NCBI GenBank assembly: GCA_947172415.1
Contig: OX359191.1
Span: forward strand, 5,208,001-5,272,000
DNA length: 64,000 nt
From: Chondrosia reniformis
Lineage: Eukaryota; Porifera; Demospongiae; Chondrillida; Chondrillidae
Direction: 5' to 3'
This document shows, piece by piece, positions 241 through 62,030 of this stretch (within the stretch, counting starts at the first letter, position 1; each line of letters starts with the position of its first letter). The notes beneath the pieces are model-generated. The model was given only the letters and a program-made list of their open reading frames with translations. It was not told where the DNA came from and searched no databases. The position numbers were made by a program, and so were the translations under genes.

Positions 241-2030
241 ACTGTTGGTTAATTAATGATTATTGAGCTACAGCAACAGGAATATTCTTTAGAATTAAAC
301 ATTTCAACCCTAAGGTCTTCATCAGCAATAATGAAAGGAAGAGCACAAGTGTGTTTAAATAGATGTTGGGTGGCAGGTGGTGAGTGATGATGTAATAGTG
401 AATTGCGCCAAATATTAATTAGGATGAAAAGAATAAAATAAGGTGGTAGTGTTAATTAATTAAGTATGTCCTTCCAAATGGGATCCACATTCATTCCTAA
501 GTCCATGTTCATGCAAGGTGTTTTCTGTATTAGTATAGCCTCCTTGATCTTTCTTCTGATTTTGTGTTGTTCTTCCTGTAAAACCTTAGCATTCTCCAAT
601 GATATGTCATGCAAGGTTTCTTTAACATGTACAGCTAGAGAGTTGTTAGTGTCAATTCTGTTTTATGTTCCTTCATCCTGTCAATGAGGGTCTTACATGT
701 TCACCAATGTACACTTGTCCGCATCTGCAAGGTATTTCATAAATGACTCTTGTATCCTGAGTCTCTGGTGTCTTTATCCTTGTCATTATGGAGCAAAGCG
801 TGTTAGTTGCCTTGTGTCGGATTCTCACCTCCAGTGTTCTGCAAACTCTTTGTAGGGTTTCACTTAAACCTTTGATGTAAGGTAAGCAGAGGACAAGTTG
901 TCCTTTTTTAGTCAGATCATCATTCCATCTTTTCTTCTTCTTTAGTGTTCTTCTTACAAGTCCTTCTGGGTAACCATTTGTAATGAAGGTGGTTCTGATG
1001 TCTTCCAGTTCTCTTTGTAGTGATTATCCTTTGCATAGGTATTCAGCCCTTTTTTGAGGCATAAGATGATGCCAATCTTCGTGGACGGATGGTGATTACA
1101 ATTGTAGTGAATGTAGCTATCGGTATGTGTAGGCTTTCTGAACACACTGGTGTGGATTTGTTTTGAAACTCTTCCGACCGAGACATCTAAGAAAGGTTAT
1201 TGTCCTTGTGTTTTCCTCCTACAGTGTGAATTTGATGTTGTCCCTAATTGAGTTGAGATGTTCGAGAAAACCTTTCAGTTGTTCTTTACCATGTCCCCAT
1301 ATTACGAAGGTTTCATCCACATACCTTAGCCATATAGTTGGTTTCTTAGTGGTAGAGTTGATTGCTAGGTTCTCAAAATATTCCATATAAATGTTAGCAA
1401 CTACTTGGGACAGGAGGGGACCCATGGCAGCCCCTTCAGTTTTTTGGTAGAAATTATCCCCAAATTTAAAGAAAGTTGTGGTAAGGCACTTCTTCAGTAA
1501 GTCAGTAATTATGTCGGGTGGTAGGTTTGTTCTCTCCACAAGAGTTGTGCATTTGTGTAGTAAATCCGAAACAATGCTGATGGCTTCATTGATTGGTGCA
1601 TCAAAGCTAACCATTCTATCATTAGGCTCAGTCCTGGTGTCCCTGAGTAACTGTACAAAGTGGATGGAGTTACGTACAGTATGACATGACTTACCAGCAA
1701 GGGGGAGAGAATCTTTGTTAATTCTTTCACCAGGCTCTAAGTGGGGGAATTTGCAGAAGACATAATGGGTCTTAGCGGTCTGTCTACCTTGTGGATCTTT
1801 GGTAACCCATAGATACGTGGTGGTTGGCAATGGAATGGTGCTAGTTTTAGTCTAGTCTCCATATCCATTAGTCCTTTCTGTTCAATTGGCTTCATAGTTT
1901 GGTTGATCTCTCTTTCAATTTTGACTTGTGGATTTTTCTTTTTTCTTGATAGGTGTCATCTTTGAGTAGATTCTCCATTTTGATGTGGTATTCTGTAGTA
2001 TTCTTAGTACTGTCCGTACATGTACATAGT
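241..2030 (-). mobile_element. Penelope-like retroelement (PLE-1), 5'-truncated and broken
   Basis: Coding remnants run from about 2015 to 460 on the minus strand. In order: an N-terminal piece (EYHIKMENLLKDDTYQ), the PLE signature PRIYGLPKIHK with RPLRPIMSS (about 1830-1755), the RT core at 1830-1219 with EGAAMG and WLRYVDETFVIW, the post-RT piece FRKPTHTD at 1145-954, and a C-terminal GIY-YIG domain near 790-660 (VIYEIPC...VYIGE). RT then C-terminal GIY-YIG is the usual endonuclease-positive PLE order. Several frameshifts separate the pieces. The second catalytic Asp of YVDD is Glu here. The 3' end (about 320-290) has CTGATGA, a short stem and GAAA, as at many PLE ends. The element lies in an intron of the SAMD3-like gene in the same orientation. 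Confidence 0.85.
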
Positions 2031-10559: not shown

Positions 10560-12185
10560 CACTCTTTTTTCACCTGCACATGCCTTCATTACTAACCATC
10601 TCATTACAAAAATGTACAATGTATGACCCAGTGGAGAAGAAGATGAAAGAAGGGAAAAGAAGGAAGAAAAGACTCGTGTATCTTCATCTAAAGCTCTCTT
10701 TAGGTTTAGTTCCCCTTAGGCTCTTTTTACAGAATAGGCATATTGCATGTAGGAAAATGGTATCTTAGATTTTTCATGGGTGAATGGGAGTGAAAAAATA
10801 ATCTGAAAATTCAAATACAGTCTGAAAGGAAAAAAAGGAAAAAAATTACAACAGAGGGTGATGGGTGGAAAGGCATATGAGGGCTAAGGTTGTCCAGACC
10901 CTGCTAAATAGGTTCTACAAAAACACAACACAGTTGACAGTCTGGCCATAGCTCAAAGGTCATATATATGTACGTACATGTGGTTCATAGTATTCTAGCT
11001 AGGTATTTATACAGTCCAGGTATTTAGTGGGTGGAGGGTTCTTCCCAGTTCCTTTTGGTCCAGATGTCATAGGAGCATTCTAGGCATGTTTTGATAGTTA
11101 ACTTCTCAAAATCTTTTTTTCATTGTTCTTGGCCTTCACCAGTTTGTAAACTTGGTTGAAACATTCAGTATTCAAGAACCCTCTTGAACCGACCTCTACT
11201 GTAATAATGTTAGTCTTATAGTTGTTTTTCCTGCAGCTTTCAGCAAGAGAGTGGTACCTCTGTTCCCTCCTTAGCTTGGCATCTGTGAATCCTGTTTCAA
11301 AGGGGACTGTTAGTTCAACAAGGTGGATGGATGTGTCATTCCATATGACAATATCTGGTCTGGAGTCTGTGGCTGTTATGTGTTGTGGAAAGTTGTAGGG
11401 GTGTCTGGAAAGATATACAGTGATGTTGGCTCTTGTTGGTTGATGGCTTTTCAGAAAGTGGAAGATGATGTCCAGTATCTTGTCATGTCTGCTGTTGTAC
11501 CTCCTGTAGCTGAGGGCCTTGTTGCAGTTGTTCAGTACATAGTATAGGGTTTATTTTTGGGAGCATAGCTTACAGGCTGCTGATGGTAATTTTCCCCACA
11601 GGTGGAGATTTGCAGTATGGGGGAGGGTATCTATGACTGCATTTAAGCTGAACTTGAATATGTTTTCTGTTAGTGATGGAATAGTAGAAGACCACATATT
11701 GGGGGCTCAATCATGGCATAGAGTAAAAATCTAACCTTGTCTTGTTAGTCCAGAACTATGTTCAGCATGGTTCTTCGTATCCTGATGAAATACTTTACTT
11801 TTGATTCTGGCTAAGTTTTGCTTCCGGGATACCTCTGGGTCCTCCTTTATTACAGTGATAACTTCCTGGTGTGGCTTGAAGACAGGACGTTTTGCTTTCT
11901 CTTCTGCTATTGTACTCCTGGTGGCAAGGTGTCTTATCAGTGGGTCCTGTGATGTCATCATAGAGGCTGCTAGAGCACATTTCATTTCCTTAAAGAAGAC
12001 CACAATTGAAGAGAATTAAAGTCCTCCTTAATCCTTGGGCAGGTATAGCCGGTTTCCATCAGCACATTTGGCCAATCATGACCATTTTTTCAGGTATCGT
12101 GTTGCTAAGGCTACCAGGTTCTTTACCACCCAGCTATAGGGGAGGTCATTGGTTGCTAAATCCCAGAGCAGACGGGGGTGATGCC
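10560..12185 (-). mobile_element. REL-type LINE copy E1, 5'-truncated
   Basis: The 3' end (plus-strand left edge) has the same signature as the other copies, poly-pyrimidine then CACCTGCACAT, next to CTCACTCT. The minus strand at 12003-11731 reads MKCALAASMMTSQDPLIRHL, matching the region between RT and CCHC in copies E2 and E4 but divergent enough to be a separate subfamily. Homology on the 5' side stops near 12180 within the segment downstream of RT. The 3' UTR is interrupted by the 154-bp repeat at 10624-10777. A short CT tract (TCTCTCTT) separates it from E2. Confidence 0.75.
10624..10777 (+). repeat. 154-bp TGACCC...TTTTTCAT module, copy a
   Basis: It starts TGACCCAGTGGAG and ends TAGATTTTTCAT. 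Near-identical copies lie at 53364-53520 and 56718-56889 (plus) and a partial one at 19060-19126 (minus). Here it sits alone inside the 3' UTR of LINE copy E1. Its first base equals the predicted hammerhead cleavage position seen at 56717/56718. Confidence 0.8.
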
Positions 12186-19059: not shown

Positions 19060-19126
19060 ATGAAAAATCTAAGATACCATTTTCCTACATGCTATATGCC
19101 TATTCTGTAAAAAGAGCCTATAGGGG
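19060..19126 (-). repeat. 154-bp module, partial copy d
   Basis: The minus strand carries the last 67 bp of the module, ending in the same TTTTTCAT boundary as copies a and c. The 5' half is missing. Confidence 0.75.
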
Positions 19127-19362
19127 ACATGTACAGACCAATACAACAAAATGATACTAATTTACACGCAAGACATTAACAAATAAAGTGAAAACAAGGT
19201 AACAATACGTTGATAATAAGGTCAAATCTTCACCTGCTAGTGCATGGTTAAGGTGGTGAGAAAGTGAATAACAAGCCTATAATGGGCGTGATGACACACC
19301 CTTCAACTAACAGAATAAATAGACTCCACCCAGCATAGCTGCAACAGCTGATACAGCAAAAA

Positions 19363-44331: not shown

Positions 44332-44376
44332 ACCACACTGATGAGCCCTAAAGAGGGTGAAACAGCTGTTTGTGGT
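44332..44376 (+). ncRNA. Type I hammerhead ribozyme, complete by sequence
   Basis: All parts of the hammerhead core are in order. Stem I left strand ACCACA (44332-44337); CTGATGA (44338-44344); stem II GCCC/GGGT (44345-44348 with 44355-44358, loop TAAAGA); GAAA (44359-44362); a one-pair stem III C-G around loop AGCT (44363-44368) extended by the A-U pair; then TT (44369-44370) as the UH site; stem I right strand TGTGGT (44371-44376), fully complementary to ACCACA. Predicted cleavage is after 44370. Short stem III with a four-base loop is the form known from PLE and retrozyme hammerheads. The host element is not identified; a related half-motif on the opposite strand lies near 44260-44280. Confidence 0.75.
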
Positions 44377-47410: not shown

Positions 47411-49891
47411 TGCCAAACTTTTCGAGCCTGGGGGTCTTCTTCAGTGACTGATGTTGGTCTTCAAGGTGTCTTCATTTATAGGCATCTTTTCCCGTCATTT
47501 TCGGTTACCTCATCAGTGATGTCATCGGTTACATCATTTCCGGAGGAAGGACAGGTGAAGGGAGTATTCATAAAAAAGGGTTTCCAACCACTTCTTAGTA
47601 CAGTTCCTTGATCTAAGTTCATTCTTACCTGACATTGTTGGATCTTCAGGGCTTCTTTAATCCTCTTCCCTCTCCACCACTCTGGCTTGGCTCCACTCAA
47701 TTGGATGGCCAGTTTTTAGGGAGTGAACAGCTAAGCCATTGTTCACATTCCCCATCCTGACGGCACGTTTGTGCTCCGCCATCCTGACTTTCAACGTTCT
47801 TCCTGTTTCTCCAGTGTACACTGCAGGGCAACTAGAACAGGGGATTTGGTAAACGACACCTTTAATATCCATGGTAGGCTGTGGTTGTTTAGGCCTTGAG
47901 AGGATACTCCTCAGCGATCTCTGCTTTGTGAAGATGGTTTCAATGTTCATCTTCCGGCATGTTCTGGAGATCATTTCACTGAGGCCTTTCACATATGGAA
48001 TAAAAAGTTTTCGTTTACCATCTCCCCTACTTCCCTGGCTCCGTTTTCACTTCTTTATGTGCCTAGCAGCAAGCTTACTGGGGTATCCGTTGGCCTGGGG
48101 TACCCCTTTCAGGTGCTCTTCTTCCTCTTGGAGGACACTGGATCCAGCACCACCTCTGCTCTGTCCCTGAGGCAAAGGGCAATGCCAGCTTTCACCCTAG
48201 AATGGTGATGAGACGAGAAGTGAAGGTATCTATCCATGTGGGTTGGTTTTCTGTACAAGGCTGTACTCAAACTTCCCTTGTTCTTCTTCACTAACACGTC
48301 AAGGAACGGGATAGAGCCATTGGTCTCCTCCTCCATGGTGAACTGGATGTTTCCATGTCTTCCATTAAGGAAAGACAGAAAATTCTCCAGCTGACCCCTA
48401 CCTTGACTCCAGATGACAAAGGTGTCGTCTACATAACGTAGCCAGAGCCTGGGTTTGTAGCCAGCCTTCTGGAGGGCTTCATTTTCAAACTCTTCCATGA
48501 AGATGTTTGCCACCACTGGAGAGAGAGGAGAGCCCATGGCTGCCCCATCCTTCTGCTCAAAGAACTTGTCACTGTACTGGAAGTACGTTGTCCTAAGACA
48601 GAGTTCTGTGAGCGTTGTGATGGTGGGAGGGTCCAGAGTGGTCCGGTCTGATAGGGTGTTGTCTTCCCTCAGCCTCCTATCAATGATCTGCAAGGAGAGA
48701 TCTATAGGTACCTTAGTAAACAAGCTCCTCACATCAAAGCTGATTAACTTATCTTCATTCTATACGTGTAATCCCCTCATTTTCTTCACAAAGTCCTCCG
48801 AGTTCCTCACAAAGTGAGGAGTGTTCCCCCACAAGGGTGAGAGGATATTTGCCAGATATCTAGATAGGTGGTAGGTAGGGGAGTTTATAGAGGAAACAAT
48901 AGGTCTCAAGGGGCAACTGGCCTTGTGGATCTTTGGGAGTCCATAAAACTGGGGGGTGGAGCTTTGTTGGTTCTGAACCCTCTTCCTCAGATCATTGGGG
49001 AGTTTGCCATTTTTTCCAGTGACCGGAGAACTTCAGTTACCCGTTCGATTTTCAATGTTGGGTTCTTTTTGATTGGTTGATAGCTTGTATCATCCAAAAG
49101 TTCCCTTACTTTGGGGTCGTACTCTTCTTTGTCCAGGAGGACTGTGGCATTTCCCTTGTCTGCTGGAAGAATGATGGTATCAGAGTCCACCTTGAGCTCC
49201 TTGATGGCTGCTGTCTGACGTTTGGTCAGATTCGGGCTCGGGACCCCAGCTTTTGACAGGCATCATTGGACTTCACTCCTGAGTTGTTCTCCCTGGTGAC
49301 CAGATAAGTAACGAGCTAAGGATTCTGTCCCCGCAGTGATATCAACCCCGTGGAATGTGACAAGGAGTTGGTATAAAATTAAAACCTAGGGTAAGAACCT
49401 GTCTCTGTTGTGGTGTCAACTCCCTCTTAGAAAGGTTGATGATCACTTTTTCTGGGTCAATGGGAGTGAATCTGTTGACCTTGATGTTCCTGTCTAGCAG
49501 AGACTGGAACTTCACCCTATGCCTCTACTTGGTTTCCTGGAAGGTCCTTTCAGCAATGTTGTCACTCCATTCCTTCAGTTTAGGGAAGGATTCCCTGCTG
49601 ACCAACTTCATTAAGGAAGTTTTACAGTATTCCAACAGGATTTGGGAGTGATGTAATGTCCTACGAGCCGCGCCGATGCGTTCACATACTAGGTCCATTG
49701 ATGTGCGAAACGCTAATCATTTGGCCTTTTCCATGACAATAGGGAGCCGTATTCGAAGTCCTTTCGGCATGATCTTCTTGTCCCTGCATCTGAGGAAGAA
49801 AACAAGATGATTACGGTAACGGGCGATACGTTCTTTGATGTTCCTAAGTTGGTAGCACACGGCAATTGTAGCTCGCTCTAAGCGATCAATA

Positions 49892-53363: not shown

Positions 53364-53520
53364 TGAATCCAGTGGAGAAGAAGATGAAAGAAGGGAAAAG
53401 AAGGAAGAAAAAGACTCCTGTATCTTCATCTAAAGCTCTCTTCAGGTTTAGTTCCCCTATAGGCTCTTTTTACAGAATAGGCATATAGCATGTAGGAAAA
53501 TGGTATCTTAGATTTTTTAT
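53364..53520 (+). repeat. 154-bp module, copy b, at the 5' end of the permuted PLE
   Basis: It starts TGAATCCAGTGGAG and follows the other copies to TTAGATTTTTTAT. Unlike copies a, c and d, sequence of the element continues directly from its 3' side. Confidence 0.8.
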
Positions 53521-53821: not shown

Positions 53822-54100
53822 GAAGTGTAGCAATAAGCGGTGTAAAACATGTCTTCTTTAGTTACTGGCCCTACTTTTAAGAGTTTAGTTACAGGCAGGA
53901 CCTCTCAAGTCCTTAGTGCTTGTGGTCCCCTAGGATGCCAGAGTAGGAATGTTGTGTATCTTATTACTTGTAAACAATGTGATGTACAGTATGTAGGAGA
54001 AACCTCTCAAATACTTAGGAGTAGAATGAACAACCATAGGACTAGTACCAAAGGTTTTCAGCAATCATTTTAATTCTGATAACTATAGTTTTGATGAGCC
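53822..54100 (+). pseudogene. N-terminal GIY-YIG endonuclease of the permuted PLE
   Basis: A Cys cluster (CSNKRCKTC, about 53826-53852) precedes VTGPTFKSLVTGRTS, CGPLGCQSRNVVYLITCKQC, YVGETSQ and LRSRMNNHR at 53849-54040. NVVY and YVGE correspond to the GIY and YIG strands, and the Arg in RSRM matches the usual catalytic Arg. A frame change near 53855 and two more near 54068 and 54103 separate it from the Cys cluster and from the following domain (HFNSDNYSFDE, then LIMPIEQIPE). The domain nicks target DNA in PLE relatives. Confidence 0.75.
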
Positions 54101-55186
54101 TTGATTATGCCCATAGAACAGATACCTGAGACACCTAATTCTACTAGCCTCAGACTACTGAGAGAAGCGTTCTGGTACAAGGAACTCTGCTCTATTTATC
54201 TATATGGACTTAACGATAACATTAAATGCGTTGGCAATATTTCGAAACTTAAAAAACAACTACCACTTTACAAGAACGGGGGCTTTCTAGCCAAACTTAA
54301 ATGCGATACTTTTGTATTACAAGCTCGACACCTTCATTGTTTGTTAAACTCAGTACAATGTCTCATCGATACCCCAAAAACACCTTTTCCGCTTAGACTT
54401 ATGCTAATGATTAAAGACGTTATTAAAGCACGCGCTTCAGCCAGCCTTCCCAAACACCCAACGAAAACGACCAGTCCAAAAAGGTTTCTTAAAATCGTGT
54501 TTCATAATAAAGGTGTAGAAAAAATAGGCCTCTCAGGTATCTTAAACCAAAAGTTAGTGTTAGAAACTGTCCCACTCTTTATTCAAAACAAAGAGCCCCC
54601 ATTTGTATTATATAAGTATACCCAACTGATAGGACCTCAAATCTTTAACTTTTCACAAGCCTCTAGGTCAGATGTCTTTAGAAAACCAGAACCATGTGAG
54701 TGTCACAAGTCCCCTTTCATTTACAAGCCCCTAGGCCATGTTTTAACAGGTGACCTACGTATTGTTAGTAACCCAAAACCTAGAAAACTTCTTAAGAAAG
54801 GACTAAAATTTAGAGAACCTAATAACTTTAATTGGGTAACTGCTTTAAAAATGTGTAAGGAAGGTCTTAGAAAATATAAGATTACCTGGGCCTGTAGAGA
54901 AAATGTATCTACTTCTGTATTTAGTGAGTGGGAAAATGCTGTACTTAAGAAAATTAATGATAGGATCTCTAAGCTGTCTAAATTGTATACCAAATCCTCA
55001 GTTGCCAAGAAGACCTTTACTTGTCCTAAAATTAAGAAATTCTTAGCAGACCTACATGATAAGTGTGTTATAGCCCCAGCCGATAAGGCCTCTAATAATA
55101 TAATATTAATATGTAAATCCTACTATAGGCAAATTATCAATGAAGAACTAGGCAGTGCCTCCACTTATGCTAAATGTACAGCATAA
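54101..55186 (+). CDS. Central domain of the permuted PLE polyprotein
   Basis: A 361-residue open frame, among the longest in the window. It begins with the end of the endonuclease domain (MPIEQIPETP, LREAFWYKEL, IYLYGLNDN). A Lys-rich middle follows, then PEPCECHKSPFIYKPLGHVL (a small Cys motif also found in related elements), VLTGDLRIV, FREPNNFNW and, near the C terminus, DKCVIAPADKASNNI, which is the PLE equivalent of the ADKG motif ahead of RT. A stop at 55184-55186 interrupts the polyprotein; the frame resumes after about 90 bases with PSFYWMPKLHKN. The ATG is internal to the domain, so this is a fragment and not a native start. Confidence 0.75.
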   Translation: MIMPIEQIPETPNSTSLRLLREAFWYKELCSIYLYGLNDNIKCVGNISKLKKQLPLYKNGGFLAKLKCDTFVLQARHLHCLLNSVQCLIDTPKTPFPLRLMLMIKDVIKARASASLPKHPTKTTSPKRFLKIVFHNKGVEKIGLSGILNQKLVLETVPLFIQNKEPPFVLYKYTQLIGPQIFNFSQASRSDVFRKPEPCECHKSPFIYKPLGHVLTGDLRIVSNPKPRKLLKKGLKFREPNNFNWVTALKMCKEGLRKYKITWACRENVSTSVFSEWENAVLKKINDRISKLSKLYTKSSVAKKTFTCPKIKKFLADLHDKCVIAPADKASNNIILICKSYYRQIINEELGSASTYAKCTA

Positions 55187-56583: not shown

Positions 56584-56610
56584 TTTTGGCGCCAAAATAG
56601 TGTATATAAG
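56584..56610 (+). promoter_or_regulatory. E2F-like palindrome and TATA box
   Basis: TTTTGGCGCCAAAA (56584-56597) is a perfect palindrome with an E2F-like core. TATATAAG follows at 56603-56610. A start about 30 bases downstream would put the hammerhead-like fold at 56678-56723 inside the leader of the next unit. Confidence 0.5.
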
Positions 56611-56677
56611 GCCCCTAGATTTAGCATAAATAAGGATTCACAGAAGATCAAGATAAAGAAAAAGACAAAGACTCCAA

Positions 56678-56723
56678 GGATCAGTGATGAAGGGTGGAAT
56701 TCCCAGAAATGGCTGTCTGACCC
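56678..56723 (+). ncRNA. Hammerhead-like ribozyme, one core base changed
   Basis: Stem I GGATCA (56678-56683) pairs with TGACCC (56718-56723) with one mismatch. The core reads GTGATGA (56684-56690), so the expected first C is G. Stem II is GGG/CCC (56692-56694 with 56702-56704), closed by an A-A mismatch. GAAA is at 56706-56709. A minimal stem III follows (T.G around GGCT), then GTC (56715-56717), the preferred cleavage triplet. Predicted cleavage is between 56717 and 56718, precisely where the 154-bp module starts. The C-to-G change would weaken or abolish activity in this copy. Confidence 0.55.
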
Positions 56724-56889
56724 AGTGGAGAAGAAGATGAAAGAAGGGAAAAGAAGGAAAGAAGGGAAAAGAAGGAAGAAAAGACTCCTGTATCTTCATC
56801 TAAAGCTCTCTTCAGGTTTAGTTCCCCAATAGGCTTTTTTACAGAATAGGCATATAACAAGTAGAAAAATGGTATCTTAGATTTTTCAT
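56718..56889 (+). repeat. 154-bp module, copy c
   Basis: It starts TGACCCAGTGGAG and ends ATTTTTCAT. An internal duplication of GAAGGGAAAAGAAGGAA makes it longer than copies a and b. Confidence 0.85.
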
Positions 56890-56976
56890 GAGTTCTAATT
56901 TGTTTAAATCTTCTTCTTGGATGTTCGCTCTAAAACAAAGTGAGGAATTATGGGTTAATTATAGGCTCACTTTTTA

Positions 56977-59589: not shown

Positions 59590-62030
59590 AACAATGTCAT
59601 TTATGGAAATCGGAAAGATTGCTTTAGGGCCACAAGCTGATATGATCTACAATATAGTGGAAATAACTCCACCAGAGTCATCAGAAGCAAATTAAGAACA
59701 CGTAAAGAAAAGTTGGAAGACTTCGTAAGAGAGAATACAGACGAAACAAACTACAAGTACATCACAGAGATCCTGAACGAAGAGAAAAGAAAATATGCCA
59801 TGAAAATCAAGATGAAACACAAACAAAAGGTCGACAACCTTCTGGACGAAGTGACCATTAGACTACAGAGACGATAGGTTTAGATGAAGACAAGATAATA
59901 AAGAACCTAAGCCATAGATATCTCACCAGCGAAGAGAAAGGAGTGCTCGCCCTCGGCCTGAATTACGCCGTCACTCCAAAGACCATTCTGAAAATCGACA
60001 TTGTAGCTGCCGTGGAAAACGCAGCAAGATTTCTATCACCAGAAGCAGCAGCAGACTTCCGACTGGAAATGAAGAAAAGCTTGAAGAGAAGCGATCCACC
60101 CATCCCTAACTTGACTAGGAAACGGAGAGAAGTAATACAACAACTCAGTAAAGACGATTGTAATTATATTACCAGCCGACAAAGGGAATGTCACAGTAAT
60201 AATGGACAAAACTCAATACGAAGAAAAAATGACTCAACTGTTAGAAGACCAGAGTTACAAAGCTATCAAGAAGGACCCCACAGAGAAATTATAGAGAGAC
60301 CTAAATAAGAGATTATTCCAACTATTCACATCGGAGGAAATTGACAGACCAACAAACGACCGGTTGAGGAACAGCTACAACACTCCCCCCAGATATATGG
60401 TCTCCCAAAAGTCCACAACCCTGACACCACGCTGAGGCCAATTGTGTCTTGCATCGACTCAGTAACATACACACTGGCCAAGGAACTTACCAAGATCATC
60501 TCCCCCTTAACAGGAAAGTCACCATCCTTTGTGAAAGACTCCCATGACTTTGTCAAGAAGATTCACAACTTACACCTCCCGGAGAATTTCGTCATGGTGA
60601 GTTTTGATGTGACACAATTATTCACCAGGGTCCCAATTCAGGAGTTATTAGAGATAATCCAACATAAGATTGAGAACAACCTGGACATTCAATGCAGAAC
60701 AACCCTCTCCACCGACAGAAGCAAGGAACTTCTCCTTAGATGCCTAACAACAACATACTTCCAATGGAAAGACCTGTTCTATGAACAAAGGGAGGGAGCA
60801 GCCATGGGAAACCCATTCTCCCCCGTGATCGCCAACTTGTACATGGAACATTTTGAAGAAGATCGAAGCCCTGTCAACGGCATCAGTCAAGTCACACACT
60901 TGGCTCAGGTATGTGGACGACACTTCCGTTATCTGGAATGAAGGAGAAGAAGCACTGGAGAACTTCCACCAACATCTCAACAACCACAGACCCTTCACCA
61001 AGTTCATGAGAGAAATGGAAGAGGAACACTCACTAGCCTTCCTGGATGTCCGCATAAAGAAAGAAGGAGGAAAACTGACAACAACGATCTACAGAAAGAA
61101 GACGCACACAGACCGGTACATCAACTGTAGCTCCCACCACCATCCCAACACCAAGTCAGGAGTCATCAGCTGTCTGCGGGTGAGAGCACAACGTGTGTAT
61201 GATATGGACCAACTGAAACAGGAAGGCAACTCCTGGAAGATGCCTTCAAAAGGAATGGACACCCAGAGAGAATTATTAGGAGAGCCCTGTACCCAAAGGA
61301 ACAACCAGAACCACACGTGACCGAAGATTGAACACCACCACCTAGAACTGCCAACAAGAAGATTATAAGCCTCCCATACATCAAAGGAACCACAGAAAGA
61401 CTGGGGAAAATATGCCTCAAACACGGATTAAAACCTGTATTTAGACACAGTGACACGCTGAGAGAGATAATATCCCATCCAAAGAAGAATGTACACAAGC
61501 ACAGTAACAAAGGCGTCATCTATAGGATCCCATGTAAAGATTGTAGGGCGGTCTACATTGAAGAAACAGGAAGATTTCTAAGTGTGAGGATCAGAGAACA
61601 CCAACGCACAGTACAAAAGAGGGTCAAGTACAATGCCAACGCTGTCCACACGGAGATAATGGGACATACCATCAATTGGAAGGGTGTACACCATCTGGAC
61701 AGGGAACCAATTTTGAAGCTAAGGAAGATCAAGGAAAGCCTGCACATCAAACAAGAAAGGACTTACAACCTGGACCAAAGAGTCCCTATCCATCCAACAT
61801 GGGACTCCTTATTTGATATTACCTAACAATACTGTATTCATTCCACACATTCCATTGGTTGTTTTTTTCAATTATTTTTTTATAATTTCTTTCAATTATT
61901 TTTCAATTAATCAACAACCAATCACCATCCCATACAGTATTTAAACCCATTTTCAGCTTATTTTTGTATACCTGAAGAAGCCCGAGAAGGGTGAAACATT
62001 GTAGAGATTATTTTTGAAGTCAATTTGATC
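59590..62030 (+). mobile_element. Penelope-like retroelement (PLE-3) with C-terminal GIY-YIG
   Basis: Fragments from N to C: MSFMEIGKIALGPQADM at 59595; GVLALGLNYAVTPK (59938-59980); a damaged ADKG block near 60175; PQIYGLPKVHNPDTTLRPIV (60388-60445); RT at 60444-60941 (SFDVTQLFTRVP, EGAAMGNPFSPVIANLYMEH) continuing in another frame at 60853-61320 (WLRYVDDTSVIW with both Asp, IYRKKTHTDRYINC, HHHPNTKSG); C-terminal GIY-YIG at about 61508-61640 (GVIYRIPCKDC, VYIEETGRFL, RIREHQR); end at 61826. The Gly of YIG is Glu (YIE). The 3' end near 61973-62000 has CTGAAGA, a CCC/GGG stem and GAAAC, the usual PLE end motif. At least three frame breaks and in-frame stops make it inactive. Confidence 0.88.

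What the first reader, a model, noticed from the sequence alone, without database searches (positions are those of the whole stretch)
56678..56723. Hammerhead cleavage point coincides with the start of a dispersed repeat
The predicted cut (GTC|TGACCC at 56717/56718) is the first base of the 154-bp module. Solo copy a (10624) and the 5' end of the permuted PLE (53364) begin at the same base with unrelated sequence upstream. This is what is expected if element RNA is cut by its own ribozyme before reverse transcription. Hammerheads in PLE ends are established knowledge; finding the product 5' ends of a permuted, Naiad-like PLE in the same window is the new part.
Basis: partly seen in the sequence, partly recalled or inferred. 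Interest (0 to 1): 0.8.

Follow-up and report, generated by a model that had tools for sequence, protein, structure and literature searches.

The report
Ribozyme cut marks few retrotransposon ends
A jumping element in this genome carries a degenerate self-cutting RNA motif, and a small, sharp set of its inserted copies starts exactly at the predicted cut, while many more start about 90 bases upstream at what looks like the transcription start, so most copied RNAs were probably never cut.

Summary
The hammerhead-like motif and cut (56717/56718) are real. The window copy has G at core position C3 and is probably dead; 75 of 82 sampled relatives keep the core. The motif is degenerate: no Rfam hammerhead match and A-A in place of the usual G-C pair closing stem II. 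The "module" is no separate repeat but the end of a Penelope-like element (PLE) terminal region: TATA box, start-like point, hammerhead, module. In 97 usable of 100 copies sampled without regard to 5' ends, 33 run on into the element, 42 start at -97..-84 (TATATAA at -119), 7 at -9..+5 (2 exactly at the cut), 15 elsewhere. A sharp minor peak at the cut is supported: 7 of 17 independent starts in -8..+5 (P 1e-4; 6 of 17, P 8e-4, if copy a is placed at -4), and 14 starts against at most 2 and 1 at two other TG sites. The window PLE begins at +4, and 0 of 40 body-linked copies begin at 0. Best reading: cleavage happens but is minor; uncut transcripts are the main template. Domain order fits N-terminal-endonuclease (Naiad-like) PLEs.

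The parts
56603..56609 (+). TATATAA, putative TATA box of the PLE terminal region; in the relative L062 it lies at -119 from the cut, 29-30 nt above the main 5' pile-up
56632..56640 (+). AAGGATTCA, start-like point: 42 of 97 usable sampled copies begin at -97..-84 (mode -89) relative to the cut
56678..56723 (+). Hammerhead-like motif (type I layout): stem I GGATCA/TGACCC with one A-C mismatch, core GTGATGA (C3 is G here), stem II GGG/CCC behind an A-A mismatch, GAAA, very short stem III, GTC|
   Evidence: no Rfam hammerhead match
56718..56886 (+). Module from the predicted cut to the 3' end TTTTT (18-bp unit duplicated in this copy)
56887..56890 (+). CATG after the 3' end; 93 of 96 sampled 3' flanks begin CAT, 59 of 96 CATG
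10624..10774 (+). Solo copy a: starts at TGACCC (or at -4 with one mismatch), ends at TTTTT, followed by CATG
53369..53518 (+). 5' end of the window PLE: module remnant whose identity begins at CCAGTGG (+4), not at TGACCC
53846..54073 (+). GIY-YIG endonuclease fragment, upstream of the reverse transcriptase (Pfam PF01541, E 1.1e-5)
   Evidence: GIY-YIG also downstream of the module in L061 and L058
54098..55186 (+). ORF with a CxC linker motif (PCECH)
   Evidence: same motif downstream of GIY-YIG in L061
55187..56002 (+). Frameshifted reverse transcriptase remnants with motif-A-like FDFSTLYT, motif-B-like GIPMGT and motif-C-like YIDD (read by eye, motif names recalled; no Pfam RT match)
19060..19127 (-). 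5'-truncated solo copy of the module's 3' part

Best explanation
The module is the 3' part of the terminal (promoter-bearing) region of a Naiad-like PLE. Transcription starts inside this region at about -90 to -86 (inferred from 5' ends and TATA spacing). Reverse transcription starts at the TTTTT end where the terminal region meets the body, at a CAT(G/A) target (inferred from the constant 3' end and flanks). On most templates it runs to the RNA 5' end at the start site, giving short copies that still hold the hammerhead. On a minority the RNA had been cut at GTC|TGACCC, giving copies that begin at the cut. Longer transcripts through several units give copies that run on into the element. Shown: positions and counts of ends. 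Inferred: transcription start, internal priming, actual RNA cleavage.
For: Core intact in 75 of 82 copies, C3 in 82 of 82. 7 of 17 independent starts between -8 and +5 fall at 0, P 9.7e-5. 14 independent starts at 0, all fetched, against 2 and 1 places (not fetched) at TG sites -4 and +8 under like patterns. 25 independent starts at 0 among 54 of 88 places fetched, 27 with L087 and L102. 42 of 97 starts at -97..-84 with TATATAA at -119. CAT follows 93 of 96 3' ends. Published, main-text section read: in the Anolis PLE reverse transcription starts inside the template RNA, uncut RNA is the main substrate in vitro, and the hammerhead is protein-assisted (PMC11167929).
Against: No Rfam hammerhead match; L041 folds no better than shuffles (z 0.63, 1.18), while a retrozyme-type hammerhead of the same genome does (L017, z -2.77). 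The pair closing stem II is A-A. At nine starts at 0 the target duplication found reaches into TG or TGA (L069, L071, L075, L082, L100, L249, L252, L253, L258), so the true end may be 0 to +3 there. Starts at -9 to -4 are not explained by exact cleavage. None of 40 body-linked copies starts at the start-like point either, which the model does not predict. No RNA data.
Confidence: 0.66

Rival explanations
1. Microhomology only: cDNAs end at random and are joined where the target's CATG or CATGA matches the element, so TG sites such as TGACCC collect 5' ends without any RNA cleavage.
For: Target motif CAT (CATG) in 93 (59) of 96 flanks; duplications reaching into TG or TGA at nine of the starts at 0; starts at TG elsewhere, L150 at -4 and L139, L185 at +53. 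Microhomology-mediated 5' junctions are reported for a rotifer PLE (PMC3846280, passages).
Against: Two other TG sites collect 2 and 1 places against 14 independent starts at 0; at L072, L076, L084 and L256 no duplication reaching into TGA was found.
Confidence: 0.2
2. Reverse transcriptase stops at the folded but uncut hammerhead.
For: Loose cluster at -9..+5: 7 of 20 starts between -83 and +92, P 9e-4 for a zone chosen after seeing the data, including starts at -7 (L158, L264).
Against: Exact peak at 0 within that zone; a stop by structure would be expected before stem I, at about +6 (inference); 42 of 97 copies were read through to the start-like point.
Confidence: 0.1
3. One reading: self-cleavage is the normal step and the module is the unit-length product.
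For: Copy a at 10624 and the other copies starting at 0.
Against: 27 of the first 30 exact copies on C1 keep the hammerhead; 42 of 97 start upstream of it; 0 of 40 body-linked copies start at 0.
Confidence: 0.04

Closest known systems
Hammerhead ribozymes of Penelope-like elements (Cervera and de la Pena 2014, not held; known here through passages of PMC7229834, PMC6155905 and PMC6431247)
   Same: Minimal type I hammerhead with very short stem III in the terminal repeat of a PLE.
   Different: Here the pair closing stem II is A-A, Rfam finds no hammerhead, and the genome keeps copies of both cut and uncut template ends.
Poseidon PLE of Anolis carolinensis, PAc (PMC11167929, main-text section read)
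   Same: Terminal repeat with a likely promoter, hammerhead close by, internal start of reverse transcription, uncut RNA as main template in vitro.
   Different: PAc has a C-terminal endonuclease and prefers ATT sites not homologous to the template; here the endonuclease is upstream of RT, the target is CAT(G/A), and CATG also sits at the terminal-region/body junction. No RNA-seq reads at the cut were found for PAc; here genomic 5' ends at the cut exist.
Penelope elements of the rotifer Adineta vaga (PMC3846280, passages)
   Same: Terminal repeats with a putative TATA box, solo terminal repeats, short target duplications, microhomology at a 5' junction.
   Different: That text does not mention hammerheads; low copy number there.
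Naiad PLEs with N-terminal GIY-YIG (Craig et al. 2021, not held; content recalled)
   Same: Order GIY-YIG, CxC linker, RT; tandem-like copies.
   Different: The abstract, as recalled, says they lack canonical hammerhead motifs; this element has a non-canonical one at a functional-looking place.
Metazoan retrozymes (PMC7229834, outline and passages)
   Same: Type I hammerhead; another family in this genome looks like them.
   Different: The PLE region is not a short tandem unit and is linked to protein-coding bodies.

Membership tests
Hammerhead ribozyme, type I | Conserved core CUGANGA, GAAA, UH at the cut (motif recalled) | tested here: met
   75 of 82 sampled relatives intact; the window copy has G at C3
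Hammerhead ribozyme, type I | Stem II closed by a G-C pair next to the core (recalled; also in the Rfam consensus shown) | tested here: not met
   A-A in the relatives (column tally); 3 bp follow
Hammerhead ribozyme, type I | Match to the Rfam model | tested here: not met
   No hammerhead among matches up to E 10; the same scan does find another hammerhead at 44332
Hammerhead ribozyme, type I | Self-cleavage in vitro | not testable with these tools
   Needs RNA; genomic 5' ends at the cut are indirect
Penelope-like element | GIY-YIG endonuclease with RT in one element | tested here: met
   Pfam GIY-YIG E 1.1e-5; RT motifs read by eye, no Pfam RT hit in the broken pieces
Penelope-like element | Terminal repeats and tandem or partial-tandem arrangement | tested here: met
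   27 of 40 body-linked terminal regions run on upstream into PLE 3'-end sequence; whole upstream units were not read
Naiad-like (N-terminal endonuclease) PLE | GIY-YIG upstream of RT with a CxC linker (definition recalled) | tested here: met
   Window ORFs and L061; L058 shows GIY-YIG only within the fetched stretch
Naiad-like (N-terminal endonuclease) PLE | RT phylogeny and insertion-in-fingers domain (recalled) | not tested
   No reference sequences at hand
Retrozyme | 170-400 nt non-coding tandem unit with hammerhead (PMC7229834 abstract) | tested here: not met
   Body starts occur at 48 places and the terminal region adjoins them in the 40 fetched (down to short remnants in some); other sampled copies are solo or run on into PLE sequence

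The most novel reading that the evidence does not exclude
An N-terminal-endonuclease PLE carries a degenerate, possibly protein-assisted hammerhead that yields two template classes, uncut from the promoter and cut at the ribozyme. Its more than a thousand copies then form a genomic record of how often a retrotransposon ribozyme cuts in vivo (about one template in seven or fewer, 7 against 42 in the sample), with priming at the terminal-region/body junction guided by CATG matching between target and RNA.
Probability: 0.35. Interest if true: 0.7.

Novelty: new variant of a known kind. Interest (0 to 1): 0.55.

Why it matters
What hammerheads do in PLEs is open: the one in vitro study that I read found that cleavage is not needed and saw no cut ends in RNA-seq (PMC11167929). 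A family with over a thousand copies whose 5' ends record template ends gives an independent in vivo estimate, and it puts a hammerhead-like motif in a PLE clade that is, by recall, said to lack canonical ones.

Tried and rejected
Rfam on the window and on a relative gave no hammerhead for this motif. RNA folding does not support the fold. The idea of a separate 318-bp element was dropped once copies were seen to run on into the PLE 3' part. Retrozyme-type loci L009-L038 were meant as a 5'-end control; I compared them only through L029, the output was cut, and nested inverted copies made ends unreadable, so this was left. Papers PMC8557442 and PMC4209133 are not held. The host species was not identified. 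Library searches that could have shown hammerheads in Naiads or 5' ends at the cut in PLEs; I saw no such description in the listings, but most papers behind them were not opened.

Full report
What is at the coordinates. The stretch 56678-56723 reads GGATCA-GTGATGA-AGGGTGGAATTCCCA-GAAA-TGGCTGTC|TGACCC. It has the layout of a type I hammerhead with a very short stem III and a cut at 56717/56718. A descriptor of the fold (core, 3-bp stem II allowing one closing mismatch, 3-bp stem I) finds it when C3 is left free, and finds the intact form in the relative L062; 3 of 20,000 dinucleotide shuffles of that 318-nt stretch gave any hit. The window copy has G at C3. For the Anolis PLE hammerhead, C3G alone eliminated activity (PMC11167929, main-text section read), so this copy is probably inactive. 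In the 82 of 100 sampled copies that reach the motif (5' end at -55 or further upstream; two duplicates included), C3 is present in 82 of 82 and the whole core in 75 of 82. Against a canonical hammerhead: the pair that closes stem II is A-A, Rfam gives no hammerhead match even at E 10, although the same scan finds another hammerhead in the window at 44332-44376, and L041 folds no better than shuffles (z 0.63 and 1.18; window copy 0.86), while a retrozyme-type hammerhead, L017, gives -2.77.

The module is not a separate repeat. The window lies in a 117.4-Mb, 15-contig unnamed assembly, G000. A 31-mer at the module's start occurs 1,457 times with up to 2 mismatches, the reversed control 0 times; the 34-nt hammerhead stretch occurs 2,526 times with up to 3 mismatches, control 0. 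Of the first 30 exact module starts on contig C1, 27 keep the hammerhead stretch directly upstream, and the other three (L052, L066, L067) keep at least CTGTC before the module. The module is therefore the last part of a PLE terminal region that also holds TATATAA at -119, a start-like point, and the hammerhead. Where this region begins on its 5' side was not settled.

Unbiased tally of 5' ends. I sampled by an exact 49-mer near the 3' end, which does not look at 5' ends, and took the 100 listed of 1,244 places (up to 3 mismatches). The sample is biased to young copies on contigs C1-C3. Positions are relative to the cut, T of TGACCC being 0. Two copies with the same flanks as L117 (L118, L119) were dropped, and L134 because its fetched stretch ended at the module; 97 remain. 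Four further copies with similar 3' flanks (L122, L124, L181, L186), all of the first class below, were kept. Of the 97, 33 run on into the PLE, 42 start at -97..-84 (17 at -89, 7 at -90), 7 at -9..+5 (0 twice; -9, -7, -4, +2 and +5 once each), and 15 elsewhere. Searches show 8 in the third class because they include L134. Of the 42, 40 hold an uninterrupted hammerhead core. Between -83 and +92, 7 of 20 starts lie in the 15-nt zone -9..+5, P 9e-4 for a zone chosen after the fact; 2 of 20 lie exactly at 0, P 0.006.

Is there a peak exactly at the cut? A pattern that demands four mismatches at -12..-9 and leaves -8..+4 free lists copies starting anywhere from -8 to +5 with about equal chance; it gave 23 places. 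I dropped 2 duplicates (C1:8240921, same flank in L074; C11:1960255, judged by identical letters) and 4 copies that carry the hammerhead with small changes (L095, L262, L265 seen; C10:3978536 judged by its letters). Of 17 left, 7 start at 0, the others at -7, -6, -5, +1, +2 (2), +3 or +4 (3), and +5; P 9.7e-5 for a position named beforehand. Seven of the 17 were not fetched and are read from the matched letters alone, two of them starts at 0. One of the seven starts at 0 is window copy a, which the aligner puts at -4 with one mismatch; without it 6 of 17, P 8.2e-4. A second test used the same kind of pattern at three TG sites: 25 places for a start at 0, 2 for -4, 1 for +8. Of the 25, 14 are independent starts at 0, all fetched; 3 are duplicates (C8:3366322 not fetched) and 8 are copies with the hammerhead or local duplications (C10:3978545 judged by letters). 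The 2 and 1 were not fetched, so they are upper bounds. A wider list of non-C before TGACCC has 88 places; 54 were fetched, the first 40 in order and 14 chosen from later lists. Of the 54, 25 are independent starts at 0 by alignment, 27 with L087 (copy a) and L102, which read TGTaTGACCC; 6 are duplicates and 21 are longer copies or tandem duplications. These sets overlap: L189 of the unbiased sample is the same copy as L082.

What weakens it. Targets are CAT(G/A): 93 of 96 3' flanks begin CAT and 59 CATG (body-linked copies and those without TTTTT left out, duplicates kept). Duplications of 5 or more bases were found in 52 of 102 junction pairs against about 20% in randomly paired flanks. At nine starts at 0 the duplication found reaches into TG or TGA (L069, L071, L075, L082, L100, L249, L252, L253, L258), so those bases can come from the target and the true end may be 0 to +3. 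The small set at -9..-4 is not explained by exact cleavage; at L158 the target itself reads CATGGCTGT.

The window PLE. Its 5' identity begins at 53369, CCAGTGG, +4. The 44-mer at the body start occurs at 48 places; I fetched 40. Of these, 27 run on upstream beyond -175 into PLE 3'-end sequence, none starts at -97..-84, none at 0, and 13 are scattered from -127 to +142, the window PLE among them and two (L231, L247) that look like one event. The window PLE's closeness to the cut is compatible with random truncation. That body-linked copies do not start at the start-like point either is not predicted by my model and stays unexplained.

The element. GIY-YIG at 53846-54073 (Pfam E 1.1e-5) precedes a CxC motif (54098-55186) and RT motifs read by eye. 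The same order, GIY-YIG then CxC, is found in L061; L058 shows GIY-YIG only within its fetched stretch. The RT pieces gave no Pfam RT hit; the frame is broken. This fits N-terminal-endonuclease PLEs (Naiads; recalled from Craig et al. 2021, not held). The abstract, as recalled, says these lack canonical hammerhead motifs; the present motif is non-canonical, so there is no contradiction, but its position at a 5'-end peak would be new. Four library searches listed nothing that describes it.

Reading. Module starts outnumber body starts about 30 to 1 (1,457 against 48, counted with different patterns), the 3' end is constant, and the 5' ends of copies that do not run on into the PLE fall mainly at a TATA-spaced start. 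This is what internal initiation of reverse transcription on promoter-started transcripts would leave, as reported for the Anolis PLE; putative TATA boxes in PLE terminal repeats are also reported for a rotifer (PMC3846280, passages). The hammerhead contributes a minor, sharp class. Whether it truly cuts in vivo needs RNA evidence.

Noticed in passing
window 44332-44376 (+): A second hammerhead, Rfam type I, 30.6 bits, E 4.5e-6 in a 201-base scan but below the gathering score; resembles the retrozyme-type L010 and L013.
   Followed up: partly
L022/L023, L028/L029, L030/L031: Canonical type I hammerheads (51 places over the Rfam cut-off, a lower bound), some in 354-355 bp head-to-tail pairs with copies on the other strand nearby, retrozyme-like; their stem III ACAGCTGT differs by one base from the PLE's ACGGCTGT.
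   Followed up: partly
window 60345-61826 (+), 47657-48759 (-), 1219-1851 (-): Other PLE-like pieces; the first has an RVT_1 match and, by eye, a GIY-YIG-like stretch after the RT (no Pfam hit), so the canonical order seems to coexist with the N-terminal-endonuclease order.
   Followed up: no
L139 (G000 C1:7485243-7485670): A copy starting at +53 is flanked by TTAGGG-like repeats inside the contig.
   Followed up: no
L123, L124, L180, L181, L182 3' flanks: Several insertions sit in an ACTAGTACATACA-like satellite.
   Followed up: no
L158, L194, L150, L263, L264, L267: A small cluster of starts at -9 to -4, in and next to stem III, that exact cleavage does not explain.
   Followed up: partly
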